Shown here piece after piece: positions 1-50,867 of a stretch of 50,867 nt of DNA. Position numbers and translations under genes: made by a program. Origin of the DNA: a virus; the IMG/VR virus record IMGVR_UViG_3300006865_000002, positions 1 to 50,867 of that record; one strand, written 5' to 3'. Under the pieces are notes generated by a model. The model had not been told where the DNA came from and did not search any database. It worked only from the letters and a program-made list of their open reading frames with translations. How positions within the stretch are numbered: position 1 is the stretch's first letter; each line of letters starts with the position of its first letter.

Positions 1-123
1 CACGAAGAAGGGGGAAAGCGCGTTCGATGCCTTGACCCGAAGGGTTTTGGAACTCCAACGGGAAGTCGAAAAGGTCGAACTCCGCAAGGTCAACGAAACC
101 GAGTTGCGGAAGATAGTAGACGG
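1..123. repeat. Terminal direct repeat, left copy
   Basis: These 123 bases are identical to the last 123 bases of the window. The repeat lies inside the tape-measure reading frame, and joining the ends keeps that frame open. It is therefore best read as the overlap left when a circular or circularly permuted molecule is assembled, giving a unit length of 50,744 bp. A physical terminal repeat is unlikely because it would cut an essential gene. Confidence 0.95.
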
Positions 124-2767: not shown

Positions 2768-4174
2768 ATGTCGCTTCAAAGCCATGGTCAAATCCCCGCG
2801 CTGGACTTCGATAGGGTCCACCGTGCGGACGAACCGCGTTTGCGCCAGCCGATCCCCGCTCTTAACGCGGCGTTGGAGAACGCGAACCAAACGCTTGACA
2901 AGGTAGTTGCCGCGCTGAACCGCGCGGGCTCCAACCCCCGGAACCCGATTCTTTCCGGCCTTGGCGGTCAATTCCAATTCTCGTTGGCCGTGGCCGACCA
3001 GTTGAAGGGCGTTTTCATCTTTCAGGATCGGGCCAACATCGGTTCGAACCTGAAGCCCGTTACGTCGATTCTTGCGCCCGGCGTCTACGGGATTAATCAC
3101 GTCTATGGAGCCGGGCAATCAATCGCGGGCTCCCCCGCCACGGGCGCGCGGAAGAACTTCCTTCGTGTCCAATCGGCTTTCGGCACGGTGGAAAAGGAAT
3201 TTTGGGTCAAGACCAAGGACGCGGACATTGTGGCCGTGGACGGGAAGCCCGTCCTTGATCCCGACACGCTGCTACCCGTGGTCTTGGATTTCTTCATCGA
3301 AGACCCGTCCCGGCCTTGGCTTCAACTCCCTATCGACTTCTTCGTTTCGTGGAACGATGAATTTCAAGTCCTGCACAACGCCAAGAATCCGTTTCTTGAC
3401 CCGGGCTTCCTGAAAGCCTACGGCGGGTCCAAGTTCGTTTCGTTCTTCGACAGCATCCCGGGAACCGAGGGGGTGGGCGTCAAGGTCAACCCGGTTACGC
3501 AAGCCCCCATCGAAGATCAACACTTGGTCGAAGTCCAAAACACCCCGGGGTTGAAGGAATTTACCGTCCGGTTCCGATCCAAACTGGGTTCGCCCTACTT
3601 CGTGGACTGCCCGGTTGTCCTGAACATCATTGCCCCGCCCGTCACGTCTTGCGACCCCCCGGTTATGGGACCGCCCGAGACGTGTACGGCGGTCTTGGTC
3701 CCGTTCGGAACCCCGATCCCGGCGGGAGCCCCGGACGTTCCTTCGGTCCCGGGCGTTCCGGTCGTGGTCGGAACTCCGGGCAACCCGGCGACGAAAGACC
3801 TTCTAATCGTCACCGTGCGGGGCGCGGTCACGTCGGCGGGCAAAACCCTTCTGGTCCGCCGCTGGAAGTACGTAACGTCGCCCGCCGATTTGTCCGGTAC
3901 GTATACGGACATCGTGTCGGAAGTGGGGAACTACATCCCGCTTGCGAACCCGTCCGCCAGCCCCGCGCCGGGCTCCCCGTACAACCCGGGCGAACGGCTT
4001 ACCATGGCGTTCGACGTGGGCCAAGACCGGGCGGACCTTGTGGCGTGGTATACGGTTCAAGTCGTGGACGCGGCAGGGCTTGGGGGTCCGCCTATGCTGA
4101 TCCCCGGCCCCCGAGCCCGGGATATCCAGTTCACGGCCCCCGGCGGAACGGGCGGGGAAGGACTCTGCTACTAA
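2768..4174 (+). CDS. Tail protein, Pro/Gly-rich central linker
   Basis: This 468-residue protein starts at ATG 2768, one base after the previous stop. The N-terminal third is mixed, followed by a beta-rich body. Around residues 300-340 there is a low-complexity Pro-Gly-Val-Ala linker (PIPAGAPDVPSVPGVPVVVG). The C-terminal domain again looks beta-sandwich-like. Such a two-domain plan with a flexible linker suits a tail-tip or side-fibre component. It overlaps the glycosyltransferase start (TAATG). The exact family is not recognised. Confidence 0.65.
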   Translation: MSLQSHGQIPALDFDRVHRADEPRLRQPIPALNAALENANQTLDKVVAALNRAGSNPRNPILSGLGGQFQFSLAVADQLKGVFIFQDRANIGSNLKPVTSILAPGVYGINHVYGAGQSIAGSPATGARKNFLRVQSAFGTVEKEFWVKTKDADIVAVDGKPVLDPDTLLPVVLDFFIEDPSRPWLQLPIDFFVSWNDEFQVLHNAKNPFLDPGFLKAYGGSKFVSFFDSIPGTEGVGVKVNPVTQAPIEDQHLVEVQNTPGLKEFTVRFRSKLGSPYFVDCPVVLNIIAPPVTSCDPPVMGPPETCTAVLVPFGTPIPAGAPDVPSVPGVPVVVGTPGNPATKDLLIVTVRGAVTSAGKTLLVRRWKYVTSPADLSGTYTDIVSEVGNYIPLANPSASPAPGSPYNPGERLTMAFDVGQDRADLVAWYTVQVVDAAGLGGPPMLIPGPRARDIQFTAPGGTGGEGLCY

Positions 4175-4875
4175 TGCCGACCAAGCAAGCCCAATTGGTT
4201 ACGGCGGTCATGCCGACCCGGAATCGTCCGGGCTTGGTTAAGTTCGCCGTCGAACTCTTTTTGGCACAAACCTACCCGTGCAAAGAACTGATCATCGTTG
4301 ACGATGGGACGTTGCCCGCCGAAATCCCTTCGGATTCGCGGGTCAAGTATATTCGCGTGGAGCCCATGACCATTGGGGCCAAGCACAACCTTGGTTGTGG
4401 GCTGGCGCAGGGCGAATACATGATCCATTGGGACGACGACGATTGGTTTGCCCCGCGACGTATTTCAATGCAACTTGAGCCTATCGCGCTTGGAAAAGTC
4501 GCCATTACCGGAATCCCCATGGGCCATCAACTTCGGTTTGCTGAAAAGCAATTCTTCTACTGGAAACGCGGATACCCGCGCGGAACTCGCCCGGTCAAGT
4601 TCAAGTTCCACGACAGTACGGCGGCGTTTTCCCGAAAGGTTTGGGACTTCGGAATCCGGTACACGGATTTGAACATGGGGGAGAAGGTCGATTTCATCGA
4701 AGCCGCCATGCTGCAAGGCTTCGCGGAAACCCCGATCCCCAATCATGGGTTGTTCGTGTACGGTCGGCATCGTCGCAACGCTTGGGTGTTCCCCGACTTC
4801 TGGTTGCGGCCCGTGGTCCGACCCGGCAACTTCCCCGAATCGCATTTGGACCGATACGCGGAGATTGTGGGCTAA
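4174..4875 (+). CDS. Family 2 glycosyltransferase (GT-A fold)
   Basis: The 233-residue protein has the hallmarks of GT2 enzymes: an N-terminal beta strand and loop (AVMPTRNRPG, residues 11-20), VDDG at 42-45 for nucleotide binding, and a metal-binding DXD-type run WDDDDW at 86-91. GT2 enzymes move a sugar from a nucleotide sugar to an acceptor. Length is close to a minimal catalytic domain, with no membrane anchor, so it is probably cytoplasmic. The start overlaps the stop of one tail gene (TAATG) and its stop overlaps the start of the next, so it is made with tail-tip proteins. This suggests, but does not prove, that a virion part is its acceptor. Confidence 0.88.
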   Translation: MPTKQAQLVTAVMPTRNRPGLVKFAVELFLAQTYPCKELIIVDDGTLPAEIPSDSRVKYIRVEPMTIGAKHNLGCGLAQGEYMIHWDDDDWFAPRRISMQLEPIALGKVAITGIPMGHQLRFAEKQFFYWKRGYPRGTRPVKFKFHDSTAAFSRKVWDFGIRYTDLNMGEKVDFIEAAMLQGFAETPIPNHGLFVYGRHRRNAWVFPDFWLRPVVRPGNFPESHLDRYAEIVG

Positions 4876-18095: not shown

Positions 18096-18169
18096 TGGCC
18101 CGTCGTCTAATGGTAGGACAAGGGACTTTGAATCCCTTTATCTAGGTTCGAATCCTAGCGGGCCAGCCA
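18096..18169 (+). tRNA. tRNA-Gln (UUG)
   Basis: The 74-base gene folds as a cloverleaf: acceptor TGGCCCG with CGGGCCA, anticodon arm AGGGA-CTTTGAA-TCCCT with anticodon TTG, T arm CTAGG-TTCGAAT-CCTAG, G73 and an encoded CCA. The U1-A72 pair and G73 are typical glutamine identity features. It lies between the DUF669 and polymerase genes and reads CAA codons. Confidence 0.95.
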
Positions 18170-23322: not shown

Positions 23323-23631
23323 ATGGAAGAGAAGTTGATTCACAAGGAAGGGCCGTTCCACTTCATGTTGGACCGGGAAGGGAAAATCCGAATCGACTTG
23401 CCGGACGGTCACGGCCCCAAGCTGTCCAAGGATGAAGTCCGCCAGCTTTCCCGGGGCGCGCGGTTCGTAGCGGGGTCGTTGGAGAACGCCGCGCCCTACC
23501 CCGGCCCGGTATGCCGTCACCGTTGCCGGACGTGCGACGAAGTTTGGACGCACGACCCCGAGAAACTCGAATGCCGTTGGGCCTACGATGATCTTTGCGG
23601 CGATTGCGCCGGGATGGAAAGGACCAAATGA
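23323..23631 (+). CDS. Zinc-ribbon protein, function unknown
   Basis: A 102-residue protein starts at ATG 23323 behind AAGGGGGAG. The C-terminal half has C..C pairs CRHRCRTC and CGDC, a likely zinc ribbon. It overlaps the next gene by ATGA. Adjacent to the HNH gene, it may bind nucleic acid, but no family is recognised. Confidence 0.7.
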   Translation: MEEKLIHKEGPFHFMLDREGKIRIDLPDGHGPKLSKDEVRQLSRGARFVAGSLENAAPYPGPVCRHRCRTCDEVWTHDPEKLECRWAYDDLCGDCAGMERTK

Positions 23632-24062
23632 GAAAGCTAACCGACTTGGAAGCCTTGGACGCGGAAAGGGAATTCCAGCTATTCAACGAACCCCGGAAGG
23701 ATTCCCCGCCCAACGAACGGGAAGCGTTCATGGCCGGGCTACAATTCCAATTGGGCATGGCGGACAAGGCTAGGGCGCGGGAAGTGTTCGAGCAAGAACG
23801 GTTCAAGCGCGCTTGGATTCTCGCGCGCCAAATGTCCGCCGTGTCCGCCCAAACCATTTTGGTTTTGAACAACGTCCGAAAGCGGCTGATCATAGGGCCG
23901 GACCAAAAGCCCGTGGACACGCTGGGAATCGGCAAGACCATTGAGACGGTCGCCAGCGCGCTAAAGTCCGCCGAAAAGGTCTTGGAAATCCTGAAGGTCG
24001 TACAACCGGACGGCAACGGGAATCCCATCCTTCCCAAGTTGCCGGAAGCGGGGGGCAACTAA
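23628..24062 (+). CDS. Accessory protein, function unknown
   Basis: A 144-residue protein starts at ATG 23628 in an ATGA overlap with GGAAAGGA upstream. It is helical and soluble. No motif is recognised. Its stop overlaps the start of the sulfotransferase gene (TAATG), so it is translated as part of that segment and could assist it, though nothing in the sequence shows this. Confidence 0.65.
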   Translation: MRKLTDLEALDAEREFQLFNEPRKDSPPNEREAFMAGLQFQLGMADKARAREVFEQERFKRAWILARQMSAVSAQTILVLNNVRKRLIIGPDQKPVDTLGIGKTIETVASALKSAEKVLEILKVVQPDGNGNPILPKLPEAGGN

Positions 24063-24649
24063 TGGGGAAATGCTGCAAGGAACACAAGCCCATGGACAAG
24101 GCCCGCGTGTTCGGGGTCGGGCTTTCTAGGACGGGGACTTCCAGCTTGACCAAGGCCCTAAGCGTGTTGGGCTGGAAGGCCGTTCATTGGCCGCTGTCCA
24201 TCAAAGAGATTTGCGCGGCGGAAGCGGCCACGGACATAACCGTATCGGTACGTTTCCGCGAGTTGGACCAGTCCTTCCCCGGCTCCAAGTTCGTCTTGAC
24301 CGTTCGCGCGGTCGGGTCTTGGATGGAGTCCCTTCGATCCTACTTCGACCTTGCCCATGCCCGCTACGTGAAGCGGAGTCTTTATCCCGCCCAATGGGAT
24401 TTCGTCGCGGACGCCGAACGAAAGCTATACGGAAAACTGTTGGGCTTCTCCAAGTTCACGGACGAACAATTGTTCGACGCATACAACAACCACGAAAGGG
24501 CCGTCCGAAGATACTTCACGACCCGACCCGCTCAACTGCTGGTCTTTGACGTGTCGGAAGGATGGTCCCCGCTTTGCCGATTCTTGGGCGTTCCGATCCC
24601 GGCGGAACGATTCCCCCATTGGAACCGGGTAGAGGATAAGCCCCGATGA
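24062..24649 (+). CDS. PAPS-dependent sulfotransferase
   Basis: The 195-residue protein starts at ATG 24062. VFGVGLSRTGTSSLTKAL (residues 16-33) is the 5'-phosphosulfate loop, and FVLTVRAVGSW (77-87) carries the Arg82 and Ser86 expected to hold the 3' phosphate of PAPS. These place it in the sulfotransferase family 4 group (SRTGTSSL type). Such enzymes move sulfate from PAPS to a hydroxyl or amine on a small molecule, glycan or protein. There is no signal or membrane segment, so it acts in the cytoplasm. The stop overlaps the start of an adenylyl-sulfate kinase gene that would make its donor. Acceptor unknown. Confidence 0.9.
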   Translation: MGKCCKEHKPMDKARVFGVGLSRTGTSSLTKALSVLGWKAVHWPLSIKEICAAEAATDITVSVRFRELDQSFPGSKFVLTVRAVGSWMESLRSYFDLAHARYVKRSLYPAQWDFVADAERKLYGKLLGFSKFTDEQLFDAYNNHERAVRRYFTTRPAQLLVFDVSEGWSPLCRFLGVPIPAERFPHWNRVEDKPR

Positions 24650-25146
24650 TCGTTTGGATTACGGGCCTACCGTGTTCGGGAAAAACGACCTTGGCCTACG
24701 AACTCCACAAGCGGATTGCCCTTGGCCGCGCGGTCGTGCTGGACGCCGAAGACATGCGGTCGAACTTGTGGCCGGAAATCGGCTACAGCGACCAAGACCG
24801 CCGGGACAATATGCAGCGGTTGGGCTACCTTGCCCGGATGTTCTCCCAACTTGGTTTGGTCGCCATTGTCGCGGCGGTATCCCCCTTCAGAGATACCCGC
24901 AACACGATTCGGGCTTGCAACCCCGGGGTGTTCTTCGAAGTGTATTTGGAATGCCCGTTCGATGCGCGTTATGCGCGGGACAAGCGCGGCATACTTGGCC
25001 CGCCTACGTGGAGTCGGGACGAATCGTATTACGAACCCCCGGGTATGCCGGAAATCCACGGCCATACGGACACGGAATCCCCCGACGCGCTGGCCGACCG
25101 CGTTATACGGGCCATGGTCGAAAAGGGGCTGGTCCATGCCCATTGA
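24646..25146 (+). CDS. cysC-like: Adenylyl-sulfate (APS) kinase
   Basis: The 166-residue protein starts at ATG 24646, overlapping the sulfotransferase stop by ATGA. P-loop is GLPCSGKT (7-14). LDAEDMRSNLWPEIGYSDQD (32-51), followed by DRRDNMQRLG, is the APS kinase core, and SPFRDTR (79-85) matches the substrate lid motif. The C-terminal YYEPPGMPEIH also fits. The enzyme phosphorylates APS to PAPS. It is slightly shorter than usual and lacks the FTGI element before YE.P, so it is somewhat divergent. It relies on host ATP sulfurylase for APS, as no such gene is present. It overlaps the next gene by 11 bases. Confidence 0.9.
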   Translation: MIVWITGLPCSGKTTLAYELHKRIALGRAVVLDAEDMRSNLWPEIGYSDQDRRDNMQRLGYLARMFSQLGLVAIVAAVSPFRDTRNTIRACNPGVFFEVYLECPFDARYARDKRGILGPPTWSRDESYYEPPGMPEIHGHTDTESPDALADRVIRAMVEKGLVHAH

Positions 25147-25423
25147 TCCGACCGGACCCGCCGTCATGGTCGCGGCGCGCGGCGCGGTATGGTGGGGCTA
25201 TGCCGTCGAACGCCGGGGCAAGCGCGAAGCGTGGTTGATCCAGTCCCCGGACGGCGGTTTCCGGTACGCTTCCATTCATGCGACTTTGTATCACTACGAC
25301 CCCAAAGCGTTCGCGGCCTTGGCCGCGCTGCATCGGGACTTGGAGCCCCGCGACCCGGAGTTCGAAAAGGAATGGCGGGCCATAGTCGATAGGCTCGAAT
25401 TGTTTTCACCGAAATCTACTTGA
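25136..25423 (+). CDS. Small protein at the end of the sulfation segment
   Basis: A 95-residue protein starts at ATG 25136, inside the kinase gene. It has a short beta-like N-terminal part rich in Trp and Tyr and a helical acidic C-terminus. No family is recognised. Overlap with the kinase gene suggests joint translation and perhaps a helper role. Confidence 0.65.
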   Translation: MPIDPTGPAVMVAARGAVWWGYAVERRGKREAWLIQSPDGGFRYASIHATLYHYDPKAFAALAALHRDLEPRDPEFEKEWRAIVDRLELFSPKST

Positions 25424-28645: not shown

Positions 28646-29217
28646 TGGCTTTCGAACTCCCGACCAAGCCCCGAGCCCATGGGCATAAGTGGTACGAATG
28701 CCCGGGGAATCACGCTTACGCGAACTCTTGCCAGTTTTGCGACGGCGGGCTTGGTTGGTGCATCCGTTGTGACTGTTTCGAGGGGGAACTTACTTACACT
28801 TGCCCGGGAAGGAAAATGACCCGGGAGGAAAAGGCCCTTTCCTATGCGGGTTGGCTTAACTTCGTGAACGGGCGTTGGATCAAGAAACGTCCGGCCTTGA
28901 TCGTTGAAAAGTACCTTCATCCGGGGGCGCGTGGCGAAAAGGCAAACGCGGCGGTTTCAAAAACCGTTGGGGCAACCCTTGGGGGTTCGACTCCCCCCGC
29001 GCCCACTATTCACCGTTGCCATTGGCCCAACTGCATTCATGAAGTTCCGCCCCGGCTTTGGGGCTGTCGCTTCCATTGGTTCAAACTTCCCAAAGAACTT
29101 AGGGACGCCATTTGGCGGACCTACGTTCCCGGGCAGGAAGTGACCAAGACCCCTTCGCCCGCGTACATCAAGGCCGCGCAAGCCGTCCAAGAGTGGATCA
29201 AAGGGAACCGCGAATGA
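28645..29217 (+). CDS. Two-part Cys-rich protein whose frame runs through a tRNA-Leu gene
   Basis: The open frame from ATG 28645 (TAATG overlap) is 190 residues. Residues 1-90 form a Cys-rich unit (CQFC, CIRCDC, CPGRKM) like a known phage type. The last 65 residues (CHWPNCIHEVPPRLWGCRFH and on) look like a separate small phage protein with its own Cys set. Between them, 28925-29005 is a well-folded tRNA-Leu. The frame may be two genes joined by read-through of the tRNA region, or the tRNA may sit inside a real gene. No internal ATG in frame follows the tRNA closely. Confidence 0.6.
   Translation: MAFELPTKPRAHGHKWYECPGNHAYANSCQFCDGGLGWCIRCDCFEGELTYTCPGRKMTREEKALSYAGWLNFVNGRWIKKRPALIVEKYLHPGARGEKANAAVSKTVGATLGGSTPPAPTIHRCHWPNCIHEVPPRLWGCRFHWFKLPKELRDAIWRTYVPGQEVTKTPSPAYIKAAQAVQEWIKGNRE
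28925..29005 (+). tRNA. tRNA-Leu (CAA), CCA not encoded
   Basis: Acceptor GGGCGCG pairs with CGCGCCC; the D region TGGCGAAAAGGCAAACGC is leucine-like; anticodon arm GCGGT-TTCAAAA-ACCGT gives anticodon CAA; a long variable arm GGGG-CAA-CCC marks a class II tRNA; T arm GGGGG-TTCGACT-CCCCC is perfect; A73 follows. The next bases are CTA, not CCA. It lies wholly within an open reading frame on the same strand. Confidence 0.88.
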
Positions 29218-30403: not shown

Positions 30404-30479
30404 GGCCCCATCGTCTAGTGGCCTAGGATGTCACCCTTTCAAGGTGAAGACACGGGTTCGAATCCCGTTGGGGCTACCA
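30404..30479 (+). tRNA. tRNA-Glu (UUC)
   Basis: The 76-base gene folds as a cloverleaf: acceptor GGCCCCA with TGGGGCT (G1-U72 wobble), anticodon arm TCACC-CTTTCAA-GGTGA with anticodon TTC, T arm ACGGG-TTCGAAT-CCCGT, A73 and an encoded CCA. It resembles bacterial tRNA-Glu and reads GAA codons. Confidence 0.95.
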
Positions 30480-49618: not shown

Positions 49619-50867
49619 TGGCTGGTCCGCCGTTTGAAGCGGGTTCGATCCTGATTGCGCTTCGCGCCAGCGCGGAAAATCTCCAAAAAGAGATTAGGAA
49701 AGCCAACGACACCCTTCAACAGTTCGGAACCCAAGTCCAAAACGTCGCCAAGACGACCGAACAGACTACGGCGAAGGTCGTTGACGGCTTCACGGCCATT
49801 GACCGGAAGACCCTTCAGCTTACGGCCAGAATTGCCAACTTCTCCCAAAGGCTGATCGGTCTTCAGTTCATCCTACAATCGTTCGGGAACATTTCGGGCC
49901 AAAGCGGGGAAGGGCTGGACAAGTTCAGGGACAAGACGCAAGGCGCGGTCGCGGCCTTGACCACGTTTTCGGGTATCGTCTCGTTGTTCCCTAACAAGAT
50001 CGGCTTGATTGTCGGGGCCATCGCCGGGCTTGCAATTCTGATAGCCGACTTGGTTAGACAGTTCAACCAAGCGAGTGAAGCCGTCAAGCGCGTGGAGCAA
50101 GCCGCCGCCGATATCGACAAGTTGCGCCAAGAACGGTTGAAGCGGCAGGAACAGGACGAAATCAGGTTTGCCCAACTCCGTTTGGCTGGCGTGAAGGACG
50201 CGGGCAACGCCGAAGACCGTCTTACTTCCATCATCGAAAGCCAAAAGTCTTTGGCTGAAGAAATCACGAAGTTGGAAGCGGCGCGCGTCCAAGCGGTCAA
50301 GGACCGAGCGGCGGCGGAAGCCGCCATCGCGGAAGACATCCGGCGCAATCCCGTTATCATCATCCCCCAAGGCGAGTTCGGAGCCGTGGAAGTCGCCCGG
50401 GATTTGCGCGAAGAACTGAGGGACAACAAAGAAATTTCCCGGTTGACTACGGAATCCACGAAGCTAGGCGCGGCCTTGGGCAAGGCCCGGGAAGAGTTCG
50501 CCAAGCTGTCGAAGGAAGCGGAAGACCTACAGAATAAGGTCAAGCTGGACGAACGCTTCCAAGACGCAATCAAGACCTTCTCCGAGTTCGGTACGCAAAC
50601 GGCCCGCGTCAAGGTCCAGTTGGAACAGGGCTTGATTACTCCGTCCGAAGCCCTTTCGCAACAACTTAGCATTGCCCGTGCGGAACTTGAAGCCTTCGTG
50701 AAACTTGGGGCCAACTCCGCAAAACGAATCGGAATCCTGATCGACACGAAGAAGGGGGAAAGCGCGTTCGATGCCTTGACCCGAAGGGTTTTGGAACTCC
50801 AACGGGAAGTCGAAAAGGTCGAACTCCGCAAGGTCAACGAAACCGAGTTGCGGAAGATAGTAGACGG
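49618..50867 (+). CDS. Tail tape measure protein, N-terminal part (continues at base 2)
   Basis: The gene starts at ATG 49618 in a TAATG overlap with the chaperone and stays open to the window end. Joined across the circle it ends at 1189, 771 residues. Residues 117-146 (FSGIVSLFPNKIGLIVGAIA and on) are hydrophobic, enough for a membrane span; the rest is long charged helix. The first of three ~97-residue repeats with GLITP is at 338-342. At about 1.5 angstrom per residue it would set a tail near 115 nm, a rough estimate. Role is firm from position and composition. Confidence 0.93.
   Translation, partial: MAGPPFEAGSILIALRASAENLQKEIRKANDTLQQFGTQVQNVAKTTEQTTAKVVDGFTAIDRKTLQLTARIANFSQRLIGLQFILQSFGNISGQSGEGLDKFRDKTQGAVAALTTFSGIVSLFPNKIGLIVGAIAGLAILIADLVRQFNQASEAVKRVEQAAADIDKLRQERLKRQEQDEIRFAQLRLAGVKDAGNAEDRLTSIIESQKSLAEEITKLEAARVQAVKDRAAAEAAIAEDIRRNPVIIIPQGEFGAVEVARDLREELRDNKEISRLTTESTKLGAALGKAREEFAKLSKEAEDLQNKVKLDERFQDAIKTFSEFGTQTARVKVQLEQGLITPSEALSQQLSIARAELEAFVKLGANSAKRIGILIDTKKGESAFDALTRRVLELQREVEKVELRKVNETELRKIVD
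50745..50867. repeat. Terminal direct repeat, right copy
   Basis: Identical to bases 1-123. See the left copy: it marks closure of a 50,744-bp circular map rather than a second element. Confidence 0.95.

What the first reader, a model, noticed from the sequence alone, without database searches (positions are those of the whole stretch)
24062..25146. Phage sulfation cassette: sulfotransferase translationally coupled to APS kinase
The sulfotransferase (PAPS loops at residues 18-28 and 77-87) and the APS kinase (GLPCSGKT, LDAEDMR, SPFRDTR) overlap by ATGA, so donor synthesis and donor use are made together. Phages rarely carry either. Together they form a compact module that needs only APS from the host. 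The acceptor could be a host surface glycan or lipid, a virion glycan, a small molecule or a host protein. Motifs and overlap are seen; the joint pathway follows from known family chemistry; the target is inference.
Basis: partly seen in the sequence, partly recalled or inferred. Interest (0 to 1): 0.88.

Follow-up and report, generated by a model that had tools for sequence, protein, structure and literature searches.

The report
Phage sulfate-donor kinase and sulfotransferase pair
A complete ~51 kb tailed-phage genome carries, as one insertable two-gene unit, an enzyme predicted to make the cell's activated sulfate (PAPS) and an enzyme predicted to attach that sulfate to something, and the same partnership recurs in unrelated phages, although what gets sulfated is unknown.

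Summary
A Sulfotransfer_4 protein (24062-24649, PF17784 E 9.6e-37) overlaps an APS-kinase protein (24646-25146, PF01583 E 6e-30) by ATGA. AlphaFold models match solved sulfotransferases (SgdX2, Cpz8) and APS kinases. A 123-bp terminal repeat suggests a complete circular genome; no PAPS reductase or ATP sulfurylase was found in it. (1) A close syntenic relative lacks exactly these two genes, so they came or went as one unit. (2) In other viruses sulfotransferases of several families sit beside APS kinases more often than random placement gives (9 of 19 within 5 kb, expected 2.4), sometimes frame-overlapped, once apparently fused. (3) The kinase's closest viral kin (two contigs, 37% identical) share its shortened lid without FTG, and both overlap an unrelated sulfotransferase. 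The acceptor is unknown; a glycan is my best guess. Known enzyme families in an apparently undescribed recurrent phage module.

The parts
24062..24649 (+). Sulfotransferase, Sulfotransfer_4 family (PF17784), 195 aa; PAPS loops at residues 18-28 and 77-90, near-invariant Asp58. ATG at 24092 is an alternative start (first 10 residues low confidence in the model).
24646..25146 (+). APS-kinase family protein (PF01583), 166 aa; P-loop GLPCSGKT, LDAEDMR (DGD signature altered), SPFRDTR, RD-x-RG, YEPPxxPEI; shortened lid without FTGID.
24646..24649 (+). ATGA overlap of the two reading frames; a GAGGA Shine-Dalgarno-like site lies just upstream inside the sulfotransferase gene.
   Evidence: read from sequence
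24028..25152 (+). Cassette boundaries: the stretch absent from the syntenic relative L198, where the flanks meet within about 18 bp.
23604..24062 (+). Upstream flanking gene (unknown function; also called from 23595), present in the relative; its stop overlaps the sulfotransferase start (TAATG).
25136..25423 (+). Downstream flanking gene (unknown function), present in the relative, where it directly follows the upstream gene; its start overlaps the kinase stop by 11 nt.
4174..4875 (+). Family 2 glycosyltransferase in the tail-gene block; possible maker of an acceptor, but also present (51% identical) in the relative that lacks the pair.
1..123 (.). Exact 123-bp direct terminal repeat (matches 50745-50867): the contig looks complete and circular.

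Best explanation
The pair is a mobile two-gene sulfation cassette of a tailed phage. The kinase phosphorylates host-made APS to PAPS; the adjoining sulfotransferase uses PAPS to sulfate an acceptor during infection. It is not a sulfur-assimilation gene set, since no PAPS reductase was found. Shown: family membership by sequence, predicted folds, gain or loss as a unit, recurrence of the partnership. Inferred: catalysis by each protein, joint expression, and the acceptor. My estimates: sulfotransferase uses PAPS 0.9; kinase makes PAPS 0.75; the two serve one pathway 0.75. Acceptor: a glycan on the host surface or virion 0.45; a small molecule or lipid 0.35; protein or other 0.2.
For: Sulfotransferase: PF17784 E 9.6e-37; model pLDDT 89.5 whose best PDB matches are SgdX2, Cpz8 and schistosome sulfotransferases, E 1e-11 to 1e-9. 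Kinase: PF01583 E 6e-30; model pLDDT 92.9, the 50 PDB matches listed all APS kinases or ATP sulfurylase/PAPS synthase proteins that carry the domain. Unit: a relative with an 83% identical primase is collinear up to window 24027 and again from 25153, with about 18 bp between, and neither family was found in its 51 kb. Recurrence: sulfotransferase within 5 kb in 9 of 19 viral APS-kinase contigs against 2.4 expected, within 1 kb in 5 against 0.7 (data); abutting or frame-overlapped pairs in L148, L325, L326, L330, L336 and L348 with different sulfotransferase families and both gene orders; an apparent fusion in L075. The kinase's closest viral kin, L325 and L326, alone among the intact ones of 45 compared share its short FTG-less lid, and both overlap a sulfotransferase with no detectable similarity to the window's. 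No PAPS reductase/CysD-type, ATP sulfurylase or cytidylyltransferase-like gene in the window.
Against: The kinase has DAE in place of DGD (unique among those compared), scores below the TIGR00455 cut-off (110.5 vs 138.7 bits), lacks the FTG lid, sits on a very long branch between true APS kinases and a lidless phage kinase family, and its N-terminal half is most like the lidless family (47%). Most viral Sulfotransfer_4 contigs have no APS kinase (3 of 50 do), and few bacterial ones have one nearby (2 of 80), so the sulfotransferase does not need a partner gene. No acceptor-making gene lies next to the pair.
Confidence: 0.72

Rival explanations
1. The kinase no longer acts on APS: like the lidless phage kinases often fused to a cytidylyltransferase-like domain, it phosphorylates another small substrate (for example a sugar or nucleoside), and the sulfotransferase uses host PAPS.
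For: DAE for DGD and loss of the FTG lid; N-terminal half 47% identical to a lidless member, long branch between the groups; lidless members carry a weak CTP_transf_like match.
Against: It keeps the APS-kinase C-terminal YEPPxxPEI...T stretch that the lidless group lacks, falls with the lid-bearing set at 100/99 support (long-branch caveat), and aligns over nearly the whole TIGR00455 model; its closest kin L325/L326 share the short lid but keep DGD and score 139-143 bits with PF01583.
Confidence: 0.2
2. The pair is a sulfur-metabolism auxiliary gene set that boosts host sulfate assimilation or PAP/PAPS balance, not a decorating cassette.
For: cysC is reported as a viral auxiliary gene in metagenome surveys (PMC12766990, PMC8066274).
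Against: No PAPS reductase, CysD-type or ATP sulfurylase gene in the window; the inserted partner is a sulfotransferase, which consumes PAPS.
Confidence: 0.06
3. The two genes are unrelated cargo placed side by side in a variable region, with no joint function.
For: The region 22-32 kb differs from the relative at several places; overlaps are common here.
Against: Recurrent adjacency with different sulfotransferase families, both orders and an apparent fusion; the pair fills one exact indel.
Confidence: 0.08
4. Same pair and same chemistry as the best explanation, but the acceptor is a small molecule or lipid rather than a glycan.
For: The nearest solved sulfotransferases are SgdX2, Cpz8 (caprazamycin synthesis) and drug-binding schistosome enzymes.
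Against: Viral Sulfotransfer_4 genes lie within 1 kb of a family 2 glycosyltransferase in 10 of 50 contigs against 2.1 expected; L148 and L059 have glycosyltransferases just upstream.
Confidence: 0.35

Closest known systems
Cellular APS kinase (CysC; APS-kinase domain of human PAPSS1/2)
   Same: Fold, P-loop, DRxxNxxR, SPxR, RDxxG and YEPPxxPEI regions; best structural matches.
   Different: Lid about 7 residues shorter, no FTGID; DAE for DGD; below the TIGR00455 equivalog cut-off.
Sulfotransfer_4 enzymes SgdX2, Cpz8 and schistosome sulfotransferases
   Same: Same kind of protein by sequence and fold: both PAPS loops and the conserved Asp region; best structural matches.
   Different: Phage protein is 22-29% identical to them in the structural alignments; acceptor unknown.
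Rhizobial NodPQ-NodH (from general knowledge, not tested here)
   Same: A dedicated PAPS-making enzyme supplied alongside a sulfotransferase that decorates a signalling glycolipid.
   Different: NodPQ also includes ATP sulfurylase; not phage-borne; no homology test made.
Viral sulfotransferase or cysC auxiliary genes seen singly
   Same: Both gene types have been reported in phage or viral genomes (PMC10580990, PMC8290583, PMC12766990, PMC8066274).
   Different: Reported apart; PMC10580990 states the function of phage sulfotransferases is unclear. No paper in the held library was found on the pair.

Membership tests
Sulfotransfer_4 sulfotransferase | Profile match over the curated cut-off | tested here: met
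   PF17784 127.3 bits vs 22.8
Sulfotransfer_4 sulfotransferase | 5'-PSB and 3'-PB PAPS loops with conserved Arg and Ser, and family Asp | tested here: met
   T24, T26, R82 invariant; D58, S90 nearly so in 54 viral sequences
Sulfotransfer_4 sulfotransferase | Fold | tested here: met
   SgdX2 E 8.6e-12, TM 0.68
Sulfotransfer_4 sulfotransferase | PAPS-dependent sulfation activity | not testable with these tools
   needs an assay
APS kinase | Pfam profile match over the curated cut-off | tested here: met
   PF01583 104.7 bits vs 21.1
APS kinase | NCBI equivalog cut-off for adenylyl-sulfate kinase | tested here: not met
   TIGR00455 110.5 bits vs 138.7; so I call it an APS-kinase family protein, not a proven CysC equivalog
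APS kinase | P-loop, DRxxNxxR, SPxR, RDxxG | tested here: met
APS kinase | DGD signature | tested here: not met
   DAE; first Asp kept
APS kinase | Substrate lid with FTG | tested here: not met
   absent in the window, L325 and L326; L344 is too truncated to judge; present in the rest
APS kinase | Fold | tested here: met
   PAPSS1, Penicillium and Archaeoglobus APS kinases at TM 0.85-0.90
APS kinase | PAPS formation | not testable with these tools
   needs an assay
Complete PAPS synthesis set | ATP sulfurylase on the same genome | tested here: not met
   no PF01747, PF01507 or PF01467 match

The most novel reading that the evidence does not exclude
Phages repeatedly assemble a self-supplying sulfation module: an APS kinase, in one subtype with a stripped-down lid, frame-coupled or fused to whichever sulfotransferase family is at hand, possibly passing PAPS directly; some phages add a small cytidylyltransferase-like protein that could be a minimal ATP sulfurylase, giving sulfate activation from sulfate itself. 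The module re-decorates host or virion surfaces with sulfate.
Probability: 0.3. Interest if true: 0.75.

Novelty: new variant of a known kind. Interest (0 to 1): 0.55.

Why it matters
The role of sulfotransferases in phage genomes is stated to be unclear (PMC10580990). A two-gene unit that supplies its own sulfate donor, has an empty-site relative for comparison, and recurs with different sulfotransferase families makes the question testable: what do phages sulfate, and does it block receptors, hide virions or alter the host? The short-lid kinase subtype also offers a minimal APS kinase for biochemistry.

Tried and rejected
Single-protein scans of IMG/VR and tblastn of the sulfotransferase against 50,697 phage records found nothing, and the five kinase hits there were mostly bacterial-looking or unannotated contigs; alignments were needed. 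Reading the ATGA overlap as proof of coupling: rejected, 24 of 70 junctions overlap. A host fragment or assembly error: rejected, the pair is embedded in phage genes, the flanks are collinear with a relative, and GC matches (59.2% vs 59.3%). Linkage to the window's glycosyltransferase: not supported, the relative without the pair has it too. An anti-phage defence module: no PADLOC match. The A2 alignment was too diverse for a genome-contig scan; a tighter one worked. Paper searches on the pair gave no report. Host not determined.

Full report
OBSERVATION. The first is a Sulfotransfer_4 protein (PF17784, E 9.6e-37), the second an APS-kinase family protein (PF01583, E 6e-30). Both fold confidently (mean pLDDT 89.5 and 92.9). 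The first resembles the bacterial sulfotransferases SgdX2 and Cpz8 and schistosome sulfotransferases; the best matches of the second are APS kinases, many with APS or PAPS bound. The PAPS-loop residues are conserved across 54 viral sequences.

THE GENOME. The window is a virus record with DNA polymerase A, primase, terminase-like, portal and head genes and a 123-bp exact terminal repeat; a relative aligns across the joined ends. It is therefore probably a complete circular genome of about 50.7 kb. It has no match to PAPS reductase/CysD-type, ATP sulfurylase or cytidylyltransferase-like families, so the kinase would depend on host APS, and sulfate reduction is not the purpose.

ONE UNIT. A relative with an 83% identical primase (L198, on a 51 kb contig) is collinear with the window up to 24027 and again from 25153, with about 18 bp between in the relative. 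Neither family was found on its whole contig (the PF17784 search had no positive control within that call, but the same profile did find members in other records). The flanking genes meet directly there. Whether the event was a gain or a loss is not decided, but both genes went together. This is stronger evidence than the overlap, because 24 of 70 neighbouring gene pairs in this genome overlap.

RECURRENCE. Among 19 viral contigs picked only for a full-length APS kinase, 9 have a sulfotransferase of some family within 5 kb (2.4 expected by random placement) and 5 within 1 kb (0.7 expected). The null ignores the tendency of accessory genes to cluster, so the excess is suggestive rather than exact. 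Abutting or frame-overlapped pairs were read in L148 (Sulfotransfer_4 then a lidless kinase), L325 and L326 (sulfotransferase then kinase), L330, L336 and L348 (kinase then Sulfotransfer_2-type). The sulfotransferase calls in L326 and L336 rest on weak or local profile matches and on similarity to L325. L075 encodes one protein with a weak sulfotransferase match in its N-terminal part and a clear APS kinase in its C-terminal part. The converse is weak: most viral and bacterial Sulfotransfer_4 genes have no kinase nearby.

THE KINASE IS UNUSUAL. Its signature reads LDAEDMR where the other full-length viral kinases compared have DGD, and the stretch between RDxxG and YEPP is about seven residues shorter, without the FTG motif that every other intact one has, apart from L325 and L326. 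Those two are its closest viral kin (37% identical), keep DGD, and each overlaps a sulfotransferase that shows no similarity to the window's. The tree puts the window kinase with the lid-bearing group, but on a very long branch next to a lidless phage kinase family to which its N-terminal half is most similar. Short-lid kinases thus pair with two unrelated sulfotransferases, which supports PAPS supply; the altered signature keeps a different substrate possible.

MECHANISM. Most likely the kinase converts host APS to PAPS and the sulfotransferase spends it. For the acceptor, the solved relatives are small-molecule enzymes (their substrates are from entry titles and general knowledge), while viral Sulfotransfer_4 genes lie next to family 2 glycosyltransferases more often than expected (10 of 50 within 1 kb, 2.1 expected), and L148 and L059 have glycosyltransferases just upstream. 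I favour a glycan, with low confidence. The window's own glycosyltransferase is far away and also present without the pair.

NOVELTY. Both gene types have been reported singly in viruses, and one paper says the function of phage sulfotransferases is unclear (PMC10580990). No report of the pair was found in the held open-access library, which does not cover most subscription journals. I rate it a new variant of a known kind: known enzymes in an apparently undescribed, recurrent phage module with an odd kinase subtype.

Noticed in passing
L016:5578-6540, L048:5965-6795, L330:3662-4507, L348:5127-5579, L148:6949-7356: Viral APS kinases are often fused to or beside a small cytidylyltransferase-like protein (GRWQPxHxGH type; PF01467, with weak ATP-sulfurylase matches in two). 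It could be a minimal ATP sulfurylase, giving phages a whole PAPS pathway.
   Followed up: partly
L033, L036, L027, L091 and about 60 of the loci: A large phage family of APS-kinase-like proteins lacks the lid entirely (LNADEVR signature) and is often fused to the same cytidylyltransferase-like domain; substrate unknown.
   Followed up: partly
L059:2284-2994, L021, L028, L024, L336, L006: Several APS kinases carry an N-terminal stretch of about 65-80 residues that looks membrane-bound (DUF2061 in L059), suggesting PAPS made at the membrane beside sulfotransferases.
   Followed up: no
L168 (IMGVR_UViG_3300005613_000001, 527 kb): A 527 kb viral contig with about ten sulfotransferase matches of three families and an APS kinase.
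   Followed up: no
L075:2651-3808: Apparent natural fusion of a sulfotransferase-like domain to an APS kinase in one viral protein.
   Followed up: partly
window 4174-4875: The glycosyltransferase in the tail block is only 51% identical to that of the relative, while flanking DNA is 77-79% identical: fast change or replacement.
   Followed up: partly
window 1-123 and 50745-50867: Exact 123-bp terminal repeat, so the contig is probably a complete circular genome.
   Followed up: yes
window 18096-18166, 28925-29005, 30404-30476: Three tRNA genes (Rfam).
   Followed up: no
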